64,000 nt of DNA from an uncultured Bacteroidales bacterium (GTDB taxonomy: Bacteria > Bacteroidota > Bacteroidia > Bacteroidales > Bacteroidaceae): the NCBI GenBank assembly GCA_902801485.1, contig CADCIP010000004.1:94525-158524 (forward strand), in the 5' to 3' direction. Positions 479-46,746 of this stretch are shown here, one piece after another. The notes below the pieces were generated by a model. It did no database searches. It saw nothing but the letters and a program-made list of their open reading frames with translations, and was not told the origin of the DNA. Numbering within the stretch: position 1 is the stretch's first letter; every line of letters begins with the position of its first letter. Position numbers and translations under genes: made by a program.

Positions 479-568
479 AAGCCCCCTCCCCGCTCCCCCT
501 TTGGGTGAGGGCCTTAATTATTTTACTCTCAATTTATCACTCCCCCTAGGGGGAGATGGAGGGGGCTT
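479..568. repeat. GC-rich palindromic element between sufB and sufC
   Basis: About 90 bp with imperfect inverted ends (AAGCCCCCTCC on the left, GGAGGGGGCTT on the right) and internal CCCCCTAGGGGG-like dyads. It fills the sufB-sufC spacer and its right end abuts the sufB stop codon. It belongs to the same broad family as the copies inside uxaA, the histidine kinase and the permease at 16 kb. It could fold in the sufBC mRNA. Confidence 0.75.
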
Positions 569-9880: not shown

Positions 9881-11566
9881 ATGCCCGGCATCCCTGCCGG
9901 CCACAAGTTTGCCCTTCGCGACATTGCCCAGGGCGAGGACGTCATTAAGTACGGATACCCCATTGGGCACGCCACCCGCGCCATCCGCAAAGGTGAGTTG
10001 GTGGACCACCATAACATCGCCACCAACCTAAGCGGCACCATTGATTATAAAAGCCTCACCCCTAACCCCTCTCCCGTGGGCGAGGGGAACTTTATAGATG
10101 AGGGAAACAATTCTCCCCTCCCTCTCGGGGGAGGGGCTGGGGTAGAGGCTTTTTTCCTCGGCTATGTGCGCCCCGACGGTCAGGTAGGTATTCGCAACGA
10201 CATCTGGGTCATCCCCACCGTCGGCTGCGTCAACGGCATCTGCCGCCAAATAGTTGAACAAGCCAAAGAACAGATCAACGAAAACGATAACGTCAACGTC
10301 AACGATAACGAAAACGATAACGAAAACGAAAACGATAACGTCAACGATAACGAAAACGATAACGAAAACGACTCTAAACTCTCAACTCTAAACTCTAAGC
10401 TCTCCACTCTAAACTCTCAACTCTCCACTCTCAACTCTAAACTGACTCTAAACTCTCAACTCTCCACTCTCAACTATTTCCCTCACAACTACGGCTGCTC
10501 CCAGCTCGGCGATGATCATGAGAATACCCGCAAGATACTGCGCGATATGATCCTGCACCCCAACGCAGGCGGCGTGCTGGTCGTTGGCTTAGGTTGCGAG
10601 AACAATCAGCCCAAGGAGTTCGAGAAGATGCTGGGCGACTACGACCGCCAGCGCATCCGCTTCATGGTTTGTCAGGAGGTAGAGGGCGACGAGGTAGAAG
10701 TTGGTGTACGTATCGTCAAGGAACTTTACGCTCAGGCACAGACCTACGAGCGTGTTCCCGTACCCGTCAGCAAACTGCGTGTAGGCCTCAAGTGCGGCGG
10801 TTCCGACGGATTCTCGGGCATCACCGCCAATCCCCTTCTGGGAGCCTTCACCGACTGGCTCTGCAAGGAGCAGGGCGGCACAGCCATCCTTACCGAGGTA
10901 CCCGAGATGTTTGGTGCTGAGACCATCCTCATGCGCCGTGCCGTCTCGGAAGAAGTACTCCAACAGACCAAGGATCTTATCAACAACTTCAAGGAATATT
11001 TCCTCTCTCACGGACAACCCGTAGGCGAGAACCCCTCGCCCGGCAACAAAGCCGGAGGTATCTCCACCCTCGAAGAGAAAGCCCTCGGCTGCACCCAGAA
11101 AGCCGGCACCGCCCCCGTTTGTGGTGTCTTAGAGTACGGCGACAGGTTAGACTCAGCTCCCTCCCACAAAGTTCCCCTCTCCCTCACAGAGTTCCCCTCT
11201 CCTCGGAGAGGGGTTAGGGGTGAGGCTGGCCTCCATTTATTATCCGCTCCCGGCAACGACCTCGTTGCCAGCACCGCCTTGGCTGCTGCCGGCTGTCAGC
11301 TGGTACTCTTCACCACCGGAAGGGGAACACCCTTCTCCACCTTTGTACCCACGCTGAAGGTCAGCACCAATAGCGATTTGGCCCGTCGCAAGCCCCAGTG
11401 GATAGACTTCGATGCCGGAGTCTTATTGGATGGCACAAGCATGGAAGAGCTACTCCAACGCTTCATCGCCTACATCATAGATGTCGCCTCCGGCAAGGAG
11501 CGCACCACAGCCGAAGTACACGGCAATGCCGAATTCGCCATCTTCAAAAACGGCGTAACACTATAA
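9881..11566 (+). CDS. uxaA: Altronate dehydratase with repeat-derived insertions
   Basis: Dehydrates D-altronate to 2-keto-3-deoxy-D-gluconate. Conserved parts are an N-terminal SAF-type domain (IPAGHKFALRDIAQGE), GYVRPDGQVGIRN, PHNYGCSQLGDDHENTR, VGLGCENN, CGGSDGFSGITANP and LLSAPGNDLVASTALAAAG. Three stretches do not belong to the family: residues about 58-90 (palindromic element), 133-198 (two tandem-word repeats) and about 425-449 (palindromic element), all in frame. The codons just before the ATG read LVALQE, which continues the family sequence, but a stop 24 bp upstream lies in a repeat; about 15 N-terminal residues seem lost. It may be a working enzyme with extra loops or a decaying gene kept open by chance. 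Confidence 0.85.
   Translation: MPGIPAGHKFALRDIAQGEDVIKYGYPIGHATRAIRKGELVDHHNIATNLSGTIDYKSLTPNPSPVGEGNFIDEGNNSPLPLGGGAGVEAFFLGYVRPDGQVGIRNDIWVIPTVGCVNGICRQIVEQAKEQINENDNVNVNDNENDNENENDNVNDNENDNENDSKLSTLNSKLSTLNSQLSTLNSKLTLNSQLSTLNYFPHNYGCSQLGDDHENTRKILRDMILHPNAGGVLVVGLGCENNQPKEFEKMLGDYDRQRIRFMVCQEVEGDEVEVGVRIVKELYAQAQTYERVPVPVSKLRVGLKCGGSDGFSGITANPLLGAFTDWLCKEQGGTAILTEVPEMFGAETILMRRAVSEEVLQQTKDLINNFKEYFLSHGQPVGENPSPGNKAGGISTLEEKALGCTQKAGTAPVCGVLEYGDRLDSAPSHKVPLSLTEFPSPRRGVRGEAGLHLLSAPGNDLVASTALAAAGCQLVLFTTGRGTPFSTFVPTLKVSTNSDLARRKPQWIDFDAGVLLDGTSMEELLQRFIAYIIDVASGKERTTAEVHGNAEFAIFKNGVTL
10052..10150. repeat. Palindromic element in frame in uxaA (copy 1)
   Basis: A 99-bp element with inverted ends AGCCTCACCCCTAACCCC and the complementary form ending AGAGGCT, plus internal dyads CCCTCTC/GGGGGAGGG. 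Read in frame it gives SLTPNPSPVGEG..., between the SAF domain and GYVRPDGQVGIRN. Confidence 0.9.
10277..10474. repeat. Two tandem-word repeats in frame in uxaA
   Basis: 10277-10370 is a run of AACGAT, AACGTC and AACGAA hexamers (Asn-Asp-Asn-Val-type peptide). 10371-10474 is a run of CTCTAAACT, CTCAACT and CTCCACT words (Lys-Leu-Ser-Thr-Leu-Asn-type peptide). Together they add 66 codons before the conserved PHNYGCSQLG motif. The same two families, in the same order along the coding strand, are in the tail of the gene at 50219-55486. Confidence 0.92.
11153..11227. repeat. Palindromic element in frame in uxaA (copy 2)
   Basis: Contains the dyad CCCCTCTCCTCGGAGAGGGG and the right end TTAGGGGTGAGGCT of the family; the left end is degenerate. 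It adds about 26 residues between EYGDRL and GLHLLSAPGND. Confidence 0.85.
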
Positions 11567-11923
11567 GAGGGTAAAAGACGTGCAAGAACGCACAAAAGTG
11601 TGCGATTATGCACAAAATGCAGGTAATTGCCGAGGGGAAACACTTTTTCTGAAGTGAAAGTTTGGGGGAAGTGTTTGTTTTGTCATATATTTGCTTCCGG
11701 AAAGGTGAAATATTTAAGTTTCTGGAGTTGTTTCTGGAGTTAAAGGAGTTAGAGGAGTTACCGGGCTTTCGCCCTCCGAAGTTACCGCTTCGCTCCGACG
11801 TTACTTAAGACTTCTTGTCTGCATGTGTATAACTATCGTCCAGCCAGCATGCTGGCTTAACTTCCCCTATAACTTCCATTTTAACTTCCAATTTAACTTC
11901 CGGAAAGGTAAAAACATATTGGT
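11567..11923. other. Intergenic region between uxaA and the response regulator
   Basis: 357 bp without a gene. It holds a small stem-loop (CGCACA-AAAG-TGTGCG, 11589-11604, no T-run), the promoter at 11661-11693, and from about 11718 onward GGAGTTAAA-type and TTAACTTCC-type word repeats, including hairpin-forming text around 11757-11775. Confidence 0.7.
11661..11693 (+). promoter_or_regulatory. Bacteroidetes-type promoter for the two-component genes
   Basis: TTTG at 11661-11664, 21-bp spacer, TATATTTG at 11686-11693. It would give a leader of about 225 bases that contains the GTTAAA/TAACTTCC repeats. Confidence 0.6.
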
Positions 11924-13276
11924 ATGGAAGTAAAGAAGAATGGGAAAATACTTGTCATCGACGATAACGAAGATGTCCTTTTTGCGCTGAACCTTTTACT
12001 GAAGCCATTAGTAGAAGACATCCGCGTGGCGAAGAATCCCGAACAGATTGACAGGTTCTATGATCTGCTGCATCCCGATGTGGTGCTGCTGGATATGAAT
12101 TTCACACGCGATGCCATCAGCGGAGAGGAGGGCTTCGAGTGGTTGGAGCACATCTTGCACCGCGATGCACAGGCTGTCGTCATCCTCATGACTGCCTACG
12201 CCGATGCTGATAAAGCAGTACGGGCTTTGAAGAGCGGTGCCACAGACTTCATCACCAAGCCCTGGGATAACTCCAAGCTTCTGGCGACACTCTTTGCAGG
12301 GGTAGAACTGAGCCAAGAACGGCATAAGAACCGTCTGCTGGAACAGCGCATGGAGGTAGCAGCCGCTACAGAAGCTCCCACCCTCATAGGCGAGAGTCCC
12401 GTTATGCAACGTGTCATGCAGACGGTAGAACAAGTGGCACCGACGGATGCCAATGTGCTGATTCTCGGCGAGAACGGAACAGGAAAGGATGTCATAGCCC
12501 GACAGCTTTGCGCCCTTTCCCACCGTGCTGCAAAGCCTTTTGTCAGCATCGACTTAGGCAGCGTGCCTGAACAGCTCTTCGAGAGTGAACTTTTCGGTTA
12601 CGAGAAGGGTGCGTTCACCGATGCCCGTAAGGCGAAGGCAGGTCGCATGGAAACTGCCAGCGGAGGCACACTCTTCCTTGACGAGATAGGCAACCTTCCC
12701 CTACCCTTGCAAGCAAAATTGCTGGCAGCATTGGAGCGTCGGGAAATCTCGCGCATCGGCAGCACGCAGGTTACACCCATTGACGTGCGCCTGCTCTGCG
12801 CCACAAATGCAGACATCCATACCGAAGTGGCAGAAGGACGCTTTCGCGAAGACCTCCTCTACCGTATCAACACCATAGAGATTACCATACCGCCGCTGCG
12901 TGAGCGTGGCGAAGACATTATCCTGCTGGCCGAACACTTCCTGGCTACCTACGCACATAAATATAATAAGGTGGTGAAGGAACTCAACCGCGATGCGCGT
13001 CAACGGCTGCTGCGTCACACATGGCCGGGCAATGTGCGCGAACTGATGCATGCTGTCGAACGTGCTGTGCTCCTGGCAAAAGGGTCAAGTCTCTGTGCGC
13101 AGGACTTTGTACTGAAGGACTCCTCTCGCCGGACATCCCAGACACAGACGCTGAATCTGGAACGTTTGGAGCAGGAAGCCATCGAGCGTGCCATGAACAT
13201 TGCCGGGGGTAACGTCACGAAGGCTGCGGAACTCCTCGGCATCACACGCTTCGCATTATACAGAAAGTTGAAATAG
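11924..13276 (+). CDS. NtrC-family sigma-54-dependent response regulator
   Basis: Transcription activator of 450 residues: receiver domain (about 8-125) with the phospho-acceptor D57 and a TKPW switch region; AAA+ domain with Walker A GENGTGKD (182-189), a GAFTDA sigma-54 contact loop (229-234) and Walker B GGTLFLDEIG (248-257); C-terminal Fis-like helix-turn-helix (GGNVTKAAELLGITRFALYRKLK region). The Asp in place of Gly in GAFTGA is, as I recall, common in Bacteroidetes. It precedes its likely kinase by 63 bp. The near-consensus sigma-54 promoter at 14918-14932 and the dyad array at 14671-14752, both just past the kinase, are its obvious candidate targets. Confidence 0.95.
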   Translation: MEVKKNGKILVIDDNEDVLFALNLLLKPLVEDIRVAKNPEQIDRFYDLLHPDVVLLDMNFTRDAISGEEGFEWLEHILHRDAQAVVILMTAYADADKAVRALKSGATDFITKPWDNSKLLATLFAGVELSQERHKNRLLEQRMEVAAATEAPTLIGESPVMQRVMQTVEQVAPTDANVLILGENGTGKDVIARQLCALSHRAAKPFVSIDLGSVPEQLFESELFGYEKGAFTDARKAKAGRMETASGGTLFLDEIGNLPLPLQAKLLAALERREISRIGSTQVTPIDVRLLCATNADIHTEVAEGRFREDLLYRINTIEITIPPLRERGEDIILLAEHFLATYAHKYNKVVKELNRDARQRLLRHTWPGNVRELMHAVERAVLLAKGSSLCAQDFVLKDSSRRTSQTQTLNLERLEQEAIERAMNIAGGNVTKAAELLGITRFALYRKLK

Positions 13277-13316
13277 GACCCTCTCCCAGCCCCTCCCTTT
13301 AGGGCGGGGAGTAATT
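13276..13316. repeat. GC-rich palindromic repeat, regulator-kinase spacer
   Basis: A short copy (ACCCTCTCCCAGCCCCTCCC, then AGGGCGGGGAGT) of the GC-rich family between the regulator and kinase genes. Confidence 0.6.
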
Positions 13317-13339
13317 ACCTTTTATGAAATCATTCCGTT

Positions 13340-14632
13340 ATGAAGATGTTTTGGTTATATCTAATTGCTCTCGTGTTGGCCGCCCTCATCTGCGCTTTTT
13401 GCCTCCACGTTAGTCACTACTTTTCCGCTGTGACGATGGCGCTCGTCGTACTCGGCGTTGCCGTCAGCATCTACGGCCGCATCAGCCGCCTACGATACGC
13501 TTACCATGAAACGGAAAAGGAGAATCAGAAGTTGCATGTGAAGCTTGCAGAGGCAGAGCGACAGTTGCAGTACTTGCGACAGTTGACAGAGAATGTGGAT
13601 ACGGCTCTCTTTGTCTGCTCCACAGACGGACGCATCGACTGGATGAACCATGTGGCGACCCAATACTCCTCCCCCTCGGGGGAGGTTGGGAGGGGGCTTC
13701 TGCCTCCCCGTATCCTCTCGGCCATTGCCGAACATAAAGAGATGGTGGACGGCTGTGCGCTCTCTACGGTTCTGTTGCGAATCGACGGACAACGCAAACT
13801 TGTGGTAGCCCTGAAGGATGTATCTATGCTGATGCAGCGGCAGGAGATGGAGGCCTGGCAACAACTCATCCGCGTGCTTACCCACGAAATCATGAACTCC
13901 CTGACACCCATCATCTCCATCAGCGAGACATTGGCAGGTTCTCTCCCCCAAGGGGGAGGACAGGAGGGGGCTGCCGTCATCAACCGTCGTTGCCACTCCC
14001 TACTCGACTTTGTGGAGAGCTACCGACAACTGACGCGCATCAAGACACCCGAGAAAACGACCTTCCCCGTCTCCGAATTATTTGAACACCTAAAAGCGCT
14101 GTTCAGCCTCACCCCCAGCCCCTCTCCGGGGAGAGGGGAGAAAAATACCCCGCAATTAACGTTTTCCCCTCTCCCTGGAGAGGGGTTAGAGGTGAGGCTG
14201 TTGGCCGACCGCGCTCAAATAGAGCAAGTCCTCATCAACCTCATCAAGAATGCCTACGAAAGCGACGCCACAGAGGTTGAACTCTCAGCACAACAACTCC
14301 CCTCTCCCCGGAGCGACTGGGGTTTTAGAGGAGCCACTGAATGTGGCTCCGGCCCCACAAAGGGGAGCGAATTACCATTCGCGACGGGGTTCAGGGGCGG
14401 GGGTGAGGCTGTCGGGAGAGGGTCTGCTGGGGTTACTCTTCTGGTCCGCGACAACGGATGTGGTATGCCAGCCGACGTACTGGAACATGCCTTTATCCCC
14501 TTCTACACCACCAAACCCACTGGTACTGGCATCGGTCTTAGCCTCTGTCGGCAGATTATCCTCAAACATGGCGGCACCATCCATATCGAAAGCGAGGAGA
14601 AAAAGGGTACTACGATAGAAATAAAGATATGA
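13340..14632 (+). CDS. Membrane sensor histidine kinase with several palindromic insertions
   Basis: Inner-membrane kinase of 430 residues: two N-terminal membrane helices (about 5-27 and 29-46), a coiled coil (55-85), a PAS-like region (88-170), the HisKA motif LTHEIMN with phospho-acceptor H182, and an ATPase domain with N-box NLIKNAYES, DNGCGMP and TGIGLSL. It probably phosphorylates the regulator encoded just upstream. Four in-frame segments look repeat-derived: about residues 110-120, 201-212, 256-287 and 320-363. They avoid the catalytic motifs and fall in linkers. The kinase has almost no periplasmic domain, so it may sense a membrane state. Confidence 0.93.
   Translation: MKMFWLYLIALVLAALICAFCLHVSHYFSAVTMALVVLGVAVSIYGRISRLRYAYHETEKENQKLHVKLAEAERQLQYLRQLTENVDTALFVCSTDGRIDWMNHVATQYSSPSGEVGRGLLPPRILSAIAEHKEMVDGCALSTVLLRIDGQRKLVVALKDVSMLMQRQEMEAWQQLIRVLTHEIMNSLTPIISISETLAGSLPQGGGQEGAAVINRRCHSLLDFVESYRQLTRIKTPEKTTFPVSELFEHLKALFSLTPSPSPGRGEKNTPQLTFSPLPGEGLEVRLLADRAQIEQVLINLIKNAYESDATEVELSAQQLPSPRSDWGFRGATECGSGPTKGSELPFATGFRGGGEAVGRGSAGVTLLVRDNGCGMPADVLEHAFIPFYTTKPTGTGIGLSLCRQIILKHGGTIHIESEEKKGTTIEIKI
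13667..13698. repeat. Palindromic repeat in kinase gene (copy 1)
   Basis: Short form CTCCCCCTCGGGGGAGG followed by GGGAGGGGGCT, close to the right half of the element at 479-568. Read in frame as SSPSGEVGRGLLP. Confidence 0.8.
13941..13972. repeat. Palindromic repeat in kinase gene (copy 2)
   Basis: CTCCCCCAAGGGGGAG dyad followed by CAGGAGGGGGCT, in frame just after the HisKA helix (SLPQGGGQEGAA). Confidence 0.8.
14105..14199. repeat. Palindromic element in kinase gene (copy 3, full length)
   Basis: A 95-bp element with both ends complete: AGCCTCACCCCCAGCCCC on the left and its inverse ending GGTGAGGCT on the right, with two inner dyads CTCTCCGGGGAGAG and CTCTCCCTGGAGAG. Read as SLTPSPSPGRGEK..., between the dimerisation and ATPase domains. 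Confidence 0.92.
14297..14428. repeat. Composite palindromic insertion in kinase gene (copy 4)
   Basis: Begins CTCCCCTCTCCCCGGAG and ends GGGGGTGAGGCT, but carries extra inner dyads (GAGCCACTGAATGTGGCTC and CGAATTACCATTCG). It adds about 44 residues just before the LLVRDNGCGMP motif, so it looks like a nested or chimeric element. Confidence 0.8.
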
Positions 14633-14670
14633 TCAATGATATAAAACTATTTTATCCTGCATATAAAACT

Positions 14671-14752
14671 ATTTTCAAGCTTTGAAAATTTATAACCAAG
14701 CCTTGAAAATAAATAACCAAGTCTTGAAAATATATTTTCACGCCTTGAAAAT
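14671..14752. promoter_or_regulatory. Array of four 21-bp-spaced dyads, candidate upstream activator sites
   Basis: Four copies of a 19-bp dyad close to ATTTTCAAGNCTTGAAAAT, centred at 14680, 14701, 14722 and 14743, i.e. exactly 21 bp apart (two helical turns). Copies 1 and 4 have both arms; copies 2 and 3 have the left arm ATAACCA. They end about 165 bp upstream of the -24 element, a usual distance for NtrC-type activators. Binding by the regulator at 11924-13276 is inferred. Confidence 0.7.
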
Positions 14753-14917
14753 AATTTTAGACAAAGAAAAAAGATGTTTTTTCACGACTTAAAAAGAAAA
14801 ATGCACAACGTATTGATACCTTTTCCTGTGCACTTCCGCACAATGATGAGCGATGACGCACACAAACCCACAAGAACAGATTTCTTTAATTCACTAAGAA
14901 TCAGCCATTTACCATTT

Positions 14918-14932
14918 TGGCACGGTTCTTGC
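14918..14932 (+). promoter_or_regulatory. Sigma-54 (-24/-12) promoter
   Basis: TTGGCACGGTTCTTGCT (14917-14933) matches the -24/-12 consensus almost perfectly, with GG at 14919-14920 and GC at 14931-14932, 10 bp between them. Transcription would start near 14944, about 25 bp before the permease ATG. It follows an NtrC-type regulator gene. Confidence 0.88.
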
Positions 14933-14968
14933 TATATATAAGGTAAAGTAAGCTCATAAATTCACAAC

Positions 14969-17413
14969 ATGAAACAAGCATTTCGAATTATTTCCCGCAT
15001 GAAGGGCTACACAGCCCTTTCGCTCCTGGGCCTTATCATCTCCCTCAGCGGAACTATCATCATCGCCCGCTACCTCTATCAGGAATGGACCATCGACCAT
15101 TGGATGCCGGACTACGACAGGACGTTCATCTTGTGCCAACGCTACGTCAATGGCATTTTGGCGGATGAGCCAACGCCTGGTTTGGCTTGGAATCCCAACA
15201 ATACAAAGGGCTTCGTGTCGCCTACTTTGGGGCAGAGCGACGTGGAAGCCTTCTCAGATGTTCATCTGCTGCAGAATGGCTCCTACATCATATTGGATAA
15301 TGACGAGACCATAACCGCCTCCACTATCAGCGTTGACAGCAGTTTCGTTGATGTCTTTCCACTACAGGCTATGGAGGGCACATTGGTGCTGCGTACAGAG
15401 GGGCAGGCCATCGTGAGCGATGACTTCGCTCGTCGCCACTTCCCGGGCGAGAGTGCTGTGGGGAAGACCATGAAAATGGGCGACGAGAACATATTGCATA
15501 CCATTGTGGGCGTGTTCCGTCGGCCATCGGGCAAGAGCACAATCCACTTCGATGTTGCCAACTATGCACGTAGGGACTGGTGGGTTGGCAATGCCCTTAA
15601 CTTTACGATGATAAAGCTGGCGAAGGGCGCGAGCATGGAGGCATATAACGAGCGGCAGCCCAGGAATTCATGGGGAAGCCCGAATCCTGAGTTCTATTTT
15701 ATGCTTGTACCCTATACGGGAAACTTGAGAAGGCTGGTTGAGAGATATGGACAGGAATTCCGAACCATTCCTTCGCTGAGTCCGTGTAGCAGTCTGCAGT
15801 ACCTGTGGATGCTATTCGGTGTGGCAGTTCTGCTCTTCCTCGTCGGCATCTTCAACTTCCTGAACTTGTATGCTGTGATGCGCAGCCACCGCAGCCACGA
15901 GCTGGAGGTGCGCCGCATCTTCGGAGCCTCGCGTTGGGACATCTTCTGTCAGCTCTATGCCGAGACGTTCCTGCTCGCTTTGCTCACGATGATAGGCGTA
16001 TGGACCGTCGTGGAGCTTATGGAGCCGCTGCTCACCACCTATTATAATATAGAGGTCTTGCCGCAACGGACGTTCGACGTGGGGCTGACTGTAGCGATAG
16101 TCTTTGGATTGCCCTTTATATCCAGCCTCACCCCCAACCCCTCTCCGAGGAGAGGGGAGTCTCTCGCGACAGGAAGCCCCTCTCCTCGGAGAGGGGTTGG
16201 GGTGAGGCTCGAGGGGCTGGGGGTTGGCTTCCAATACTTCATCTCCATCACCCTCATCACCGTCAGCATCTACATGATGCGTCAGCTGCACCTGATGATG
16301 GAAGGCGACCCAGGCTACAGGACGGAGGGCATCCTCCACATCGTCCCCAAGCCCAGGGAAGACTACAACCGCATCAGGAAGGATGACAACGGGAATAGAT
16401 ACATCGTCGATAACAGCAGCGGAGAAAAGGCTATGGCTGTCTTGAAGAAGCTGAGGGAATGCCCCTACATCCAAAGCATCATCAAGGACCCTGACATGAT
16501 AAGTGCCGGTGAACTGATGGAAATAGAGGGGCATAAGCTGGTATGCAAGGAAATGTGCCACAAAACGATGGAGATGTTCGGGCTGGAATTGCTGGAAGGA
16601 AGAGAATTAAACGACACGCTGGATGACTACTCGTACAACTGCCTGCTCAATGAAACAGCAGTTCGACGCTTGGGACTGAAGGACTGGCGAAGCGCGAAGG
16701 TGCAGCTACCGGAACGATGGTGGACGTCAGCCAATGAGGATTGCTCAGAGAATCCGCCCTACAACGTAGTGGGCATCGTGAAAGACTTCCATCCCGGTCG
16801 CCTCTCAGAGCCACAACCTCCCATCATCTTCTTCCCAACCCTGAACTGGGACAGTCAGACGATGGACTTCCTGCCCGATGACTTGCTACTGAGCATTGCT
16901 CCGGGCAACGAGGAGGATGCAATAAAGTACCTGAAGCAGATGAACAAGGAGGTATGGGGAACAGAAGACCTGGAATACCAATGGCTCTCCGACCAAAAGG
17001 ATGAACTCTACCGCGAGGACCGTCGCACAGCCCGTATCTTCTTCACCTTCTCGTTCCTGGCGATTGCCGTCACTTGTCTGGGCGTGCTGGGCCTGATGAT
17101 GTTCGATGTGCGCCGCCGCTACCGCGAGATAGCACTCCGTAAGGTCAATGGCGCCACGTTCCTCGACATTGCCTTGCTGCTCTCACGCCGCTACCTTATT
17201 ATATTGGCTGTAGCTGCCGCTGTCAGCATCCCCGTCTCACTCATCGGCCTGCATCAGCTGATAACGCGCTACTATACCATCCATGCCACCATCGCCTGGT
17301 GGATTCCCCTCGTGAGCATCGCCATCGTCCTGCTGCTTTGCGCCCTGACGCTCTGGCAACAAGTATGGAAGGCAACAAGAATAAAACCATATGAAGTATT
17401 AAAGGAAAACTAA
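14969..17413 (+). CDS. ABC transporter permease, FtsX/MacB-like (first copy, with insertion)
   Basis: Inner-membrane protein of 814 residues in the MacB/FtsX style: an N-terminal helix (about 15-37), a large periplasmic domain, helices near 275-300, 325-345 and 365-380, a second periplasmic part, and three C-terminal helices with the FtsX core (FDVRRRYREIALRKVNGA). The first 48 codons and about the last 130 are nearly identical to the next gene, while the middle is diverged. Between LPFIS and FQYFISITLIT sits a palindromic insertion (about residues 386-418) that the next gene lacks. With the ATPase, TolC-like and HlyD-like genes downstream it should form an envelope efflux or export complex. 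Controlled by the sigma-54 promoter just upstream. Confidence 0.9.
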   Translation: MKQAFRIISRMKGYTALSLLGLIISLSGTIIIARYLYQEWTIDHWMPDYDRTFILCQRYVNGILADEPTPGLAWNPNNTKGFVSPTLGQSDVEAFSDVHLLQNGSYIILDNDETITASTISVDSSFVDVFPLQAMEGTLVLRTEGQAIVSDDFARRHFPGESAVGKTMKMGDENILHTIVGVFRRPSGKSTIHFDVANYARRDWWVGNALNFTMIKLAKGASMEAYNERQPRNSWGSPNPEFYFMLVPYTGNLRRLVERYGQEFRTIPSLSPCSSLQYLWMLFGVAVLLFLVGIFNFLNLYAVMRSHRSHELEVRRIFGASRWDIFCQLYAETFLLALLTMIGVWTVVELMEPLLTTYYNIEVLPQRTFDVGLTVAIVFGLPFISSLTPNPSPRRGESLATGSPSPRRGVGVRLEGLGVGFQYFISITLITVSIYMMRQLHLMMEGDPGYRTEGILHIVPKPREDYNRIRKDDNGNRYIVDNSSGEKAMAVLKKLRECPYIQSIIKDPDMISAGELMEIEGHKLVCKEMCHKTMEMFGLELLEGRELNDTLDDYSYNCLLNETAVRRLGLKDWRSAKVQLPERWWTSANEDCSENPPYNVVGIVKDFHPGRLSEPQPPIIFFPTLNWDSQTMDFLPDDLLLSIAPGNEEDAIKYLKQMNKEVWGTEDLEYQWLSDQKDELYREDRRTARIFFTFSFLAIAVTCLGVLGLMMFDVRRRYREIALRKVNGATFLDIALLLSRRYLIILAVAAAVSIPVSLIGLHQLITRYYTIHATIAWWIPLVSIAIVLLLCALTLWQQVWKATRIKPYEVLKEN
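16124..16209. repeat. Palindromic element in frame in the first permease
   Basis: An 86-bp element, AGCCTCACCCCCAACCCC to GGGGTGAGGCT, with inner dyads CCTCTCCGAGGAGAGG and CCTCTCCTCGGAGAGG. Read as SLTPNPSPRRGES.... The paralogous gene at 17472 has unrelated sequence of about 15 residues at this place. Confidence 0.92.
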
Positions 17414-17450
17414 AGCCTCACCCCCGACCCCTCTCCGAGGAGAGGGGAGT
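17414..17450. repeat. Palindromic half-element between the two permease genes
   Basis: AGCCTCACCCCCGACCCC followed by CTCTCCGAGGAGAGGGGAGT: the left half of the family, starting right at the stop codon of the first permease gene. Confidence 0.85.
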
Positions 17451-17471
17451 CAACTTGTCAACTAAAACAAC

Positions 17472-19856: not shown

Positions 19857-19955
19857 CCCTCTCGGCCTCTCCCCTAACCCCTCTCCCGTGGGAGAAGGGA
19901 AATAAATGATAGATAAAAAATGATTAAATGGTAAATAATTAAATGGTAAATGAAA
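19857..19955. repeat. Palindromic and TTAAATGGTAAAT repeats before the ATPase gene
   Basis: 19857-19903 is a copy of the GC-rich family (CCCCTAACCCCTCTCCCGTGGGAGAAGG). 19909-19955 is a tandem of ATTAAATGGTAAAT-like words running up to the start codons. Confidence 0.75.
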
Positions 19956-46576: not shown

Positions 46577-46672
46577 ACCCTTCTCTGCCCCGTCCTTTAG
46601 TAGAGTTCAGAAGCAAAAAGGGACGTATTCGTCATCCCCCCCTTTCCCTTCGGGAGGGGTTGGGGGTGAGTT
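46577..46672. repeat. GC-rich repeat of the palindromic family
   Basis: Left part ACCCTTCTCTGCCCCGTCC, right part CCCTTTCCCTTCGGGAGGGG then TTGGGGGTGAGTTC. The ends resemble the family with a diverged middle. Confidence 0.6.
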
Positions 46673-46746
46673 CTTGATTTCCAACTTCTCAGGGCAATTT
46701 GTGTGATTTTTTATTTCAACTGGCTTATAATCTCATAATTATTATA

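What the first reader, a model, noticed from the sequence alone, without database searches (positions are those of the whole stretch)
10052..16209. GC-rich palindromic elements inserted in frame in three conserved genes and read as the same peptide
Elements of about 86-99 bp with inverted AGCCTCACCCC ends sit inside uxaA, the histidine kinase and an ABC permease, and each starts as the peptide SLTP(N/S)PSP. Shorter forms occur elsewhere in uxaA and the kinase. All keep the frame and avoid catalytic motifs. This is analogous to the palindromic elements known inside Rickettsia genes; I know of no described counterpart in Bacteroidales. It could be a small non-autonomous mobile family adapted to tolerate translation.
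Basis: partly seen in the sequence, partly recalled or inferred. Interest (0 to 1): 0.85.

Follow-up and report, generated by a model that had tools for sequence, protein, structure and literature searches.

The report
In-frame palindromic elements with nuclease parents
Small GC-rich palindromes sit in frame inside many ordinary genes of rumen and other Bacteroidota, are read as one recurring peptide, and share their arms with elements that carry a homing-endonuclease-like gene, which makes that nuclease a likely engine behind them.

Summary
Confirmed and enlarged. Elements of 99, 95 and 86 bp with AGCCTCACCCC ends lie in frame in uxaA, the kinase and the permease. Single and paired arms recur in the genus and in other Bacteroidota. 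Inside genes one register dominates: sense arms 55, other registers 1 and 7. Pairs in genes are mostly 3n long (34 of 47), others not (8 of 23); the register bias is not fully explained. Orthologues show gain, loss and turnover in variable loops, with loop residues replaced and no target duplication seen. New: arms of this kind flank DUF559 (Vsr/EDxHD-like) endonuclease genes: 18 of 21 genus loci, 7 of 300 control positions; AGCCTCACC-type arms on both sides of 6 of 9 strong hits in arm-rich loci. DUF559 presence tracks arm presence (23/29 versus 8/32); the REP transposase family does not. DUF559 also lies in frame inside LeuRS and an epimerase. Best reading: nuclease-less derivatives of a homing-type element that spreads by break repair and lives translated, without splicing. 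Cleavage, mobility and translation are inferred.

The parts
9881..11566 (+). uxaA (altronate dehydratase), host of one paired element, one antisense arm and tandem-repeat insertions
   Evidence: Pfam GD_AH_C, GD_AH_second, SAF
10052..10150 (+). paired palindromic element, 99 bp, second arm diverged, read SLTPNPSPVGEG...GGGAGVEA
11193..11227 (-). single antisense arm read FPSPRRGVRGEA
13340..14632 (+). sensor histidine kinase, host of one full element and shorter forms
   Evidence: Pfam HATPase_c; HisKA below its curated cut-off
13671..13699 (+). short GC-rich palindrome inside the kinase
   Evidence: loop variable in orthologues
14105..14199 (+). paired palindromic element, 95 bp, read SLTPSPSPGRGE...LPGEGLEVRL; site empty in G003 and G018, occupied by a tandem array in G013
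14300..14410 (.). degenerate element in the kinase with an intact antisense end
   Evidence: exact end match at 14400-14410
14969..17413 (+). FtsX/MacB-type permease, host of one full element
   Evidence: Pfam FtsX, MacB_PCD
16124..16209 (+). paired palindromic element, 86 bp, read SLTPNPSPRRGE...PSPRRGVGVRL; loop strongly different in orthologues 89-93% identical over the protein
17414..17451 (+). single arm directly after the TAA stop codon of the permease
19864..19901 (+). single arm downstream of the second permease gene

Best explanation
The palindromes are nuclease-less derivatives of a small mobile element. The parent is a DUF559 (PD-(D/E)XK, Vsr/EDxHD-like) endonuclease gene of about 130-150 codons between two inverted REP-like arms of about 40-45 bp (head AGCCTCACCCC, then a CCCCTCTCC-loop-GGAGAGGGG stem). 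Inferred steps: the nuclease cuts a target; the break is repaired by copying an element into it, which replaces a few target codons instead of leaving a duplication; loss of the nuclease leaves arm pairs or single arms that can still spread when a nuclease is present. Copies survive in genes only where they land in a variable loop or at a gene end, stay stop-free and keep the frame. The element is then translated as a P/G/S-rich linker, and nuclease-bearing copies as a domain of the host protein. Shown: anatomy, shared arms, in-frame state, register bias, orthologue differences, DUF559 association. Not shown: cleavage, movement, translation.
For: Element and chance. Pairs with outward heads: of neighbouring arms less than 300 bp apart, 50 are convergent, 2 divergent, 2 in the same direction; preferred lengths 120, 129, 90 and 117 bp. 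Register: sense arms in genes, registers 0/1/2: 28/1/2 in the own genome, 55/1/7 in ten species, 33/0/5 in named records, 47/2/14 after collapsing to gene clusters under a looser rule (p 2.5e-11 against one third). Length 3n in 34 of 47 pairs lying in one frame, 8 of 23 others. Hosts include core enzymes: AsnB, CTP synthase, glutamate synthase large and small subunits, carbamoyl-phosphate synthase; the G018 CTP synthase with the element is the only one found there. Orthologues with empty or different loops. Nuclease link: four of eleven convergent arm pairs 250-3500 bp apart enclose a DUF559 ORF; inverted arms at 18 of 21 genus DUF559 loci, controls 7 of 300; arms on both sides of 6 of 9 strong DUF559 hits in 1.75 Mb (two of the ten hits are members of the model used, and one of these two counts among the six); co-occurrence p 3e-5 over 61 genomes and 0.005 within the genus, Y1_Tnp 0.20 and 1.0; 7 of 12 loci from other phyla. 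DUF559 in frame in LeuRS (two families), an epimerase, the guanylate kinase N-terminus and a phosphoglycerate mutase C-terminus; the only over-cutoff leuS in two genomes estimated 99% complete carries it without a stop. The nuclease resembles a mobile intron protein, 3r3p, E 0.0013, and the PADLOC homing endonuclease model, 2.4e-6.
Against: G018 has 42 arms and no DUF559 found (80% complete draft). Two of nine strong DUF559 hits in the arm-rich loci have no AGCCTCACC-type arm within 400 bp, and only 3 of 9 loci from other families passed the inverted-arm threshold. Five of 12 plasmid loci did not exceed the shuffles. Most arms in G000 have no second arm at the stringency used (7 pairs among 64 arms). 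At one GltB pair the sequence between the arms is host sequence, and in L179/L194 it holds a start codon and signal peptide; a simple unit-insertion model does not explain these. In G029 the epimerase frame is closed just upstream of the insertion, and the G020 nuclease has an internal stop. The genomes are related, so co-occurrence overstates independence. The register bias exceeds what stops predict.
Confidence: 0.65

Rival explanations
1. The palindromes are REP-like or MITE-like repeats moved by something else, and the DUF559 nuclease is a passenger that homes into, or is kept beside, pre-existing palindromes.
For: Arms are far more numerous than nucleases (64 versus 4 in G000). G018 has arms but no DUF559 found. 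Single arms dominate in G000.
Against: Many nucleases have their own arm variant on both sides at short distances, also in other phyla. Among eleven convergent arm pairs 250-3500 bp apart I recognised no transposase by eye in the longest ORF, while four enclose DUF559; no family scan was run on the others.
Confidence: 0.2
2. REPIN/BIME system moved by a RAYT (TnpA-REP, Y1 transposase).
For: Hairpin arms with a conserved head, in inverted pairs, look like REPINs. Two Y1_Tnp genes exist in the own genome.
Against: Y1_Tnp presence does not follow arm presence (12/29 versus 19/32) and none was found in G018, G016, G020, G029, G002, which carry 15-42 arms. L001 shows different inverted ends around its transposase, read by eye.
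Confidence: 0.06
3. The palindromes are transcribed but skipped by the ribosome (byp-like), not translated.
For: Bypassed palindromes are described in Magnusiomyces mitochondria (passage in PMC6649704); the elements form very stable hairpins.
Against: Skipped elements need no open frame, yet sense arms in genes keep one register and pairs in one frame are 3n long in 34 of 47 cases.
Confidence: 0.05
4. Low-complexity drift: GC-rich loops arose by slippage or convergent composition and are not mobile.
For: Loops hold other repeats, such as the heptamer and NDNENDN stretches in uxaA.
Against: Exact 23-mers in many genera, preferred lengths and arm pairing, copies between genes.
Confidence: 0.03

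Closest known systems
Rickettsia palindromic elements (RPE)
   Same: Palindromic elements of similar size, inserted in frame in unrelated genes, encoding a conserved peptide; about half reported outside genes (PMC10969869 passages).
   Different: Different phylum; here single arms are also common, the range is wide, and a nuclease-bearing form shares the arms. RPE sequences were not compared.
REP/BIME/REPIN with RAYT
   Same: Short hairpins with a conserved head, outward-facing inverted pairs; intragenic REPs with listed amino acids were reported in other species (PMC3733652 passages).
   Different: To a large part inside genes here, no Y1 transposase association, head is AGCCTCACC.
EDxHD/Vsr-type homing endonucleases (I-Bth0305I) and DUF559 proteins
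   Same: DUF559 domain, weak sequence match to the mobile intron protein 3r3p; one paper places a DUF559 gene, named with inteins, in the EDxHD family (PMC9403480 passage).
   Different: No intron or intein found here: no Rfam match in six loci, no splicing domain reported by Pfam; the nuclease sits between palindromic arms.
Bacterial MITEs
   Same: Small, non-coding for a transposase, inverted ends, derived from larger elements in the proposed model.
   Different: No target-site duplication seen; loop residues replaced; the proposed parent is a nuclease, not a transposase.

Membership tests
REP/REPIN moved by RAYT | Short palindromic hairpin units, often inverted pairs, many copies | tested here: met
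REP/REPIN moved by RAYT | Cognate Y1 (RAYT) transposase in the genome, flanked by the same repeats | tested here: not met
   no association over 61 genomes; ends around the transposase in L001 differ, read by eye
REP/REPIN moved by RAYT | Mainly extragenic location | tested here: not met
   39 of 64 arms in called genes in the own genome, two kinase arms missed by the caller; 47 of 70 pairs within one open frame; under the strict filter 99 of 228 arms, the rest unassigned rather than shown extragenic
Protein-coding palindromic elements (RPE-like) | In-frame palindromic insertions in unrelated genes, one recurring peptide | tested here: met
Protein-coding palindromic elements (RPE-like) | Sequence relation to the Rickettsia families | not tested
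   no RPE sequence was compared
Protein-coding palindromic elements (RPE-like) | Translated in the cell | not testable with these tools
   no proteomics held
MITE | Target-site duplication | tested here: inconclusive
   no duplication in the loops aligned, but loops are diverged
Homing endonuclease element (EDxHD/DUF559) | Endonuclease gene of a homing family within the element | tested here: met
   DUF559 between the arms; weak 3r3p match; PADLOC homing endonuclease model
Homing endonuclease element (EDxHD/DUF559) | Same nuclease at the same site in different species | tested here: met
   guanylate kinase pair 79% and epimerase pair 75% identical, nearest neighbours in the tree, although one member of each pair is disturbed; the LeuRS pair is not nearest
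Homing endonuclease element (EDxHD/DUF559) | Cleavage of the empty allele and gene conversion | not testable with these tools
   needs biochemistry
Intein or self-splicing intron | Splicing domain or ribozyme | tested here: not met
   no splicing domain listed by Pfam in the LeuRS, epimerase and other fusions; no Rfam match in six loci at gathering scores

The most novel reading that the evidence does not exclude
A class of spliceless homing elements: a DUF559 endonuclease gene between hairpin arms that inserts in frame into protein genes and is tolerated because its arms are translated as a neutral linker in one preferred register, with swarms of nuclease-less derivatives. It would occur across Bacteroidota, Pseudomonadota, Cyanobacteriota and Deinococcota and account for much loop insertion in their proteins.
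Probability: 0.4. Interest if true: 0.93.

Novelty: new variant of a known kind. Interest (0 to 1): 0.85.

Why it matters
It would give protein-coding palindromes a candidate engine, which as far as I recall the Rickettsia elements lack. It would give a role to DUF559, a widespread nuclease family of mostly unknown function, and show that a homing-type element can live inside essential genes such as leuS without splicing. It also warns that many species-specific loops in predicted bacterial proteins may be recent mobile DNA. The claim is directly testable with a purified nuclease and natural alleles.

Tried and rejected
RAYT as the mover: rejected on co-occurrence. Intrinsic adaptation of the element to translation: not supported by the lengths of pairs outside one frame; note that this class is defined by lacking an open frame, so its closed frames are partly by definition, its lengths are not. 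Stop codons as the only cause of the register bias: rejected, since of 55 sense arms open in all three registers 40 use register 0, 4 register 1 and 11 register 2. Target-site duplications: looked for in orthologous loops, none clear. Derivation of the 129-bp class by internal deletion of a nuclease element: suggestive only (GSIYDRRMKD in G001 against GSIYQ**MED in G018), not proven. One search gave only 2 of 16 genus loci at score 15 or more (controls 0 of 150; 7 loci without motif); its positions came from a loose motif and missed known arms (L469 scored 9 there and 36), so, placed on the family match, replaces it. In one search the L458 stretch cut the arm short and is not used. Papers, passages only: PMC10969869, PMC3733652, PMC6649704, PMC12907096, PMC9403480, PMC3943268, PMC6006769; the original RPE papers were not read. 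That the DUF559-palindrome link is not in print rests on the listings of searches in an open-licence library that lacks most subscription papers.

Full report
WHAT IS THERE. The three elements lie at 10052-10150, 14105-14199 and 16124-16209, in uxaA, a histidine kinase and an FtsX/MacB permease, all starting at codon position 1. The end sequence AGCCTCACCCC (up to 1 mismatch) occurs 10 times against 1.09 expected. Each element is two inverted arms with outward heads and folds into one long hairpin. The window belongs to a 3.6-Mb draft genome of 85 contigs. That genome has 64 arm matches with up to 2 mismatches, against 20 for the reversed pattern.

DISTRIBUTION. Of 61 genomes searched, 29 have at least one arm match; counts in the genus range from 0 to 64. 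The 80 rows shown are mostly rumen or other Prevotellaceae and Bacteroidaceae MAGs, with Prevotella veroralis, P. vespertina, Hoylesella shahii, Bacteroides fluxus, Flavobacterium sp. AG291, a Chitinophagaceae MAG and one Polyangium.

REGISTER BIAS. With a home-made codon-usage gene caller, sense arms inside genes of the own genome fall in register 0 (SLTP.PSP) 28 times, register 1 once and register 2 twice; antisense arms in register 1 six times and register 0 twice; 25 of 64 arms were outside called genes, among them the two kinase arms, which the caller missed. Some of these genes are paralogues. In ten species (228 arms in the stretches fetched, 129 failing the strict filter) sense arms are 55/1/7 and antisense arms 7/28/1 for registers 0/1/2. 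In the named records (184 arms, 118 unassigned) they are 33/0/5 and 10/18/0; some of these records are the same as, or near, the ten genomes. A looser ORF-length rule collapsed to gene clusters gives sense 47/2/14 and antisense 7/30/2. Among 55 sense arms open in all three registers, 40 use register 0, 4 register 1 and 11 register 2. The second class is defined by the lack of such a frame, so its closed frames are partly definitional, its lengths are not. I read open frame and 3n length as survival of tolerated copies. The preference for register 0 over register 2 goes beyond stop codons; I attribute it to tolerance of the peptide, which is inference.

ORTHOLOGUES. UxaA orthologues lack the three extra segments or carry other inserts there; G016 and G019 have a different palindrome (PPALPxREG...GRAGGE) at the same linker. 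In the kinase, G003 and G018 are empty at the site and G013 has an array of eight units. At the permease loop, orthologues 89-93% identical over the protein hold diverged palindromes; G077 keeps recognisable ends. Glutamate synthase large subunit of G000 carries six arms; in 18 of the 31 other genomes with a match, which I aligned, the same loops are empty, replaced or hit by other elements. Loop codons are replaced, and no target duplication was seen. Against solved structures the AsnB insertion adds 17 residues in one place and the CTP synthase insertion lies between two conserved blocks. That CTP synthase is the only one found in the G018 draft.

THE NUCLEASE LINK. Of eleven convergent arm pairs 250-3500 bp apart in the loci examined, four enclose an ORF of the DUF559 family: L106, L193, L311 and L265. 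A DUF559 search in the same 61 genomes matched 31; loci of 30 of them, one per genome, were fetched. Inverted arms with score 14 or more flank 18 of 21 genus loci and 3 of 9 others; 7 of 300 control positions reach 14, drawn from stretches themselves rich in elements. Arm variants differ between nucleases: G003 has the AGCCTCACC arm, G019 a variant like the one in its uxaA. In 1.75 Mb of arm-selected loci a model built from 15 of these proteins hits 10 times, 9 strongly; two of the ten are members of the model. Six of the nine have AGCCTCACC-type arms (up to 3 mismatches) on both sides, outer ends 4-86 bp from the match, and one has an arm on one side. DUF559 occurs in 23 of 29 arm-bearing and 8 of 32 arm-free genomes (p 3e-5; genus 19/25 and 3/12, p 0.005). 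Y1_Tnp occurs in 12 of 29 and 19 of 32 (p 0.20). The genomes are related, so these p-values are optimistic. G018, with 42 arms and no DUF559 found, is the main exception.

NUCLEASE IN FRAME. DUF559 lies in frame inside LeuRS in G055 and G038 (two families), inside an NAD epimerase in G024, at the N-terminus of guanylate kinase in G013 and at the C-terminus of a phosphoglycerate mutase in G016. G029 has the epimerase insertion too, but its epimerase frame is closed just upstream, and the G020 nuclease beside guanylate kinase has an internal stop. Both LeuRS copies are the only over-cutoff leuS in genomes estimated 99% complete and have no stop inside. Pfam lists no splicing domain and Rfam no match at gathering scores in six loci. 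The guanylate kinase and epimerase nucleases of different species are nearest neighbours (79 and 75% identity); the LeuRS pair is not. The nuclease matches an endonuclease-like structure (3hrl, 6.8e-20) and, weakly, a mobile intron protein (3r3p, 0.0013; I recall it as I-Bth0305I). In plasmids of other phyla, 7 of 12 examined DUF559 flanks exceed all 60 shuffles and 5 do not; 47 plasmid records matched in all.

MECHANISM AND LIMITS. I commit to a homing-type element: nuclease cut, copying of the element during repair with loss of a few target codons, and later loss of the nuclease. Cleavage, mobility and translation are not shown. Not explained: pairs whose interior is host sequence (GltB; the signal-peptide gene in L179/L194), the many single arms of G000, and the strength of the register bias.

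KNOWN OR NEW. In-frame palindromes are known from Rickettsia (passages, PMC10969869), intragenic REPs from several species (passages, PMC3733652), and DUF559 as a Vsr-like or EDxHD nuclease (passages, PMC12907096, PMC9403480). The link of DUF559 with such palindromes, and spliceless in-frame nuclease insertions in LeuRS, did not turn up in the listings of searches.

Noticed in passing
window 10253-10478: uxaA also holds long hexamer and heptamer repeats read as NDNENDN and STLNSQL; similar heptamer peptides match in open frames of G018.
   Followed up: no
L064 (G013 kinase orthologue): At the kinase site G013 carries eight tandem copies of a unit read as SRQPAKVTFSPSPTGEG.
   Followed up: partly
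L159, L166: 129-bp elements between two genes carry a stop for the upstream gene and an ATG for the downstream gene, in the same register.
   Followed up: partly
L179, L194: Arms flank a start codon and signal peptide of a host gene, so the interior looks like host sequence.
   Followed up: partly
L094, L096, L097, L102, L118: Copies sit near the C-terminus before an IYDLxGRKV-like segment that I recall as a secretion-signal domain; paralogous sites, not independent.
   Followed up: no
L103:4363-7356: Carbamoyl-phosphate synthase small and large subunit sequences lie in one open frame with two arms.
   Followed up: no
L332: An exact arm in a Polyangium genome, far outside Bacteroidota, in register 0 of a frame of about 350 codons.
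   Followed up: no
L001 1085-1955: The Y1 transposase gene of the own genome lies between different inverted ends, GGGACGGGT...CCTGTTTCA, read by eye.
   Followed up: no
L497: A Pseudanabaena plasmid has DUF559 inside a 4.9-kb annotated coding sequence, flanked by long inverted arms.
   Followed up: no
window 479-510 and 46638-46674: Further GC-rich palindromes related to the arms.
   Followed up: no
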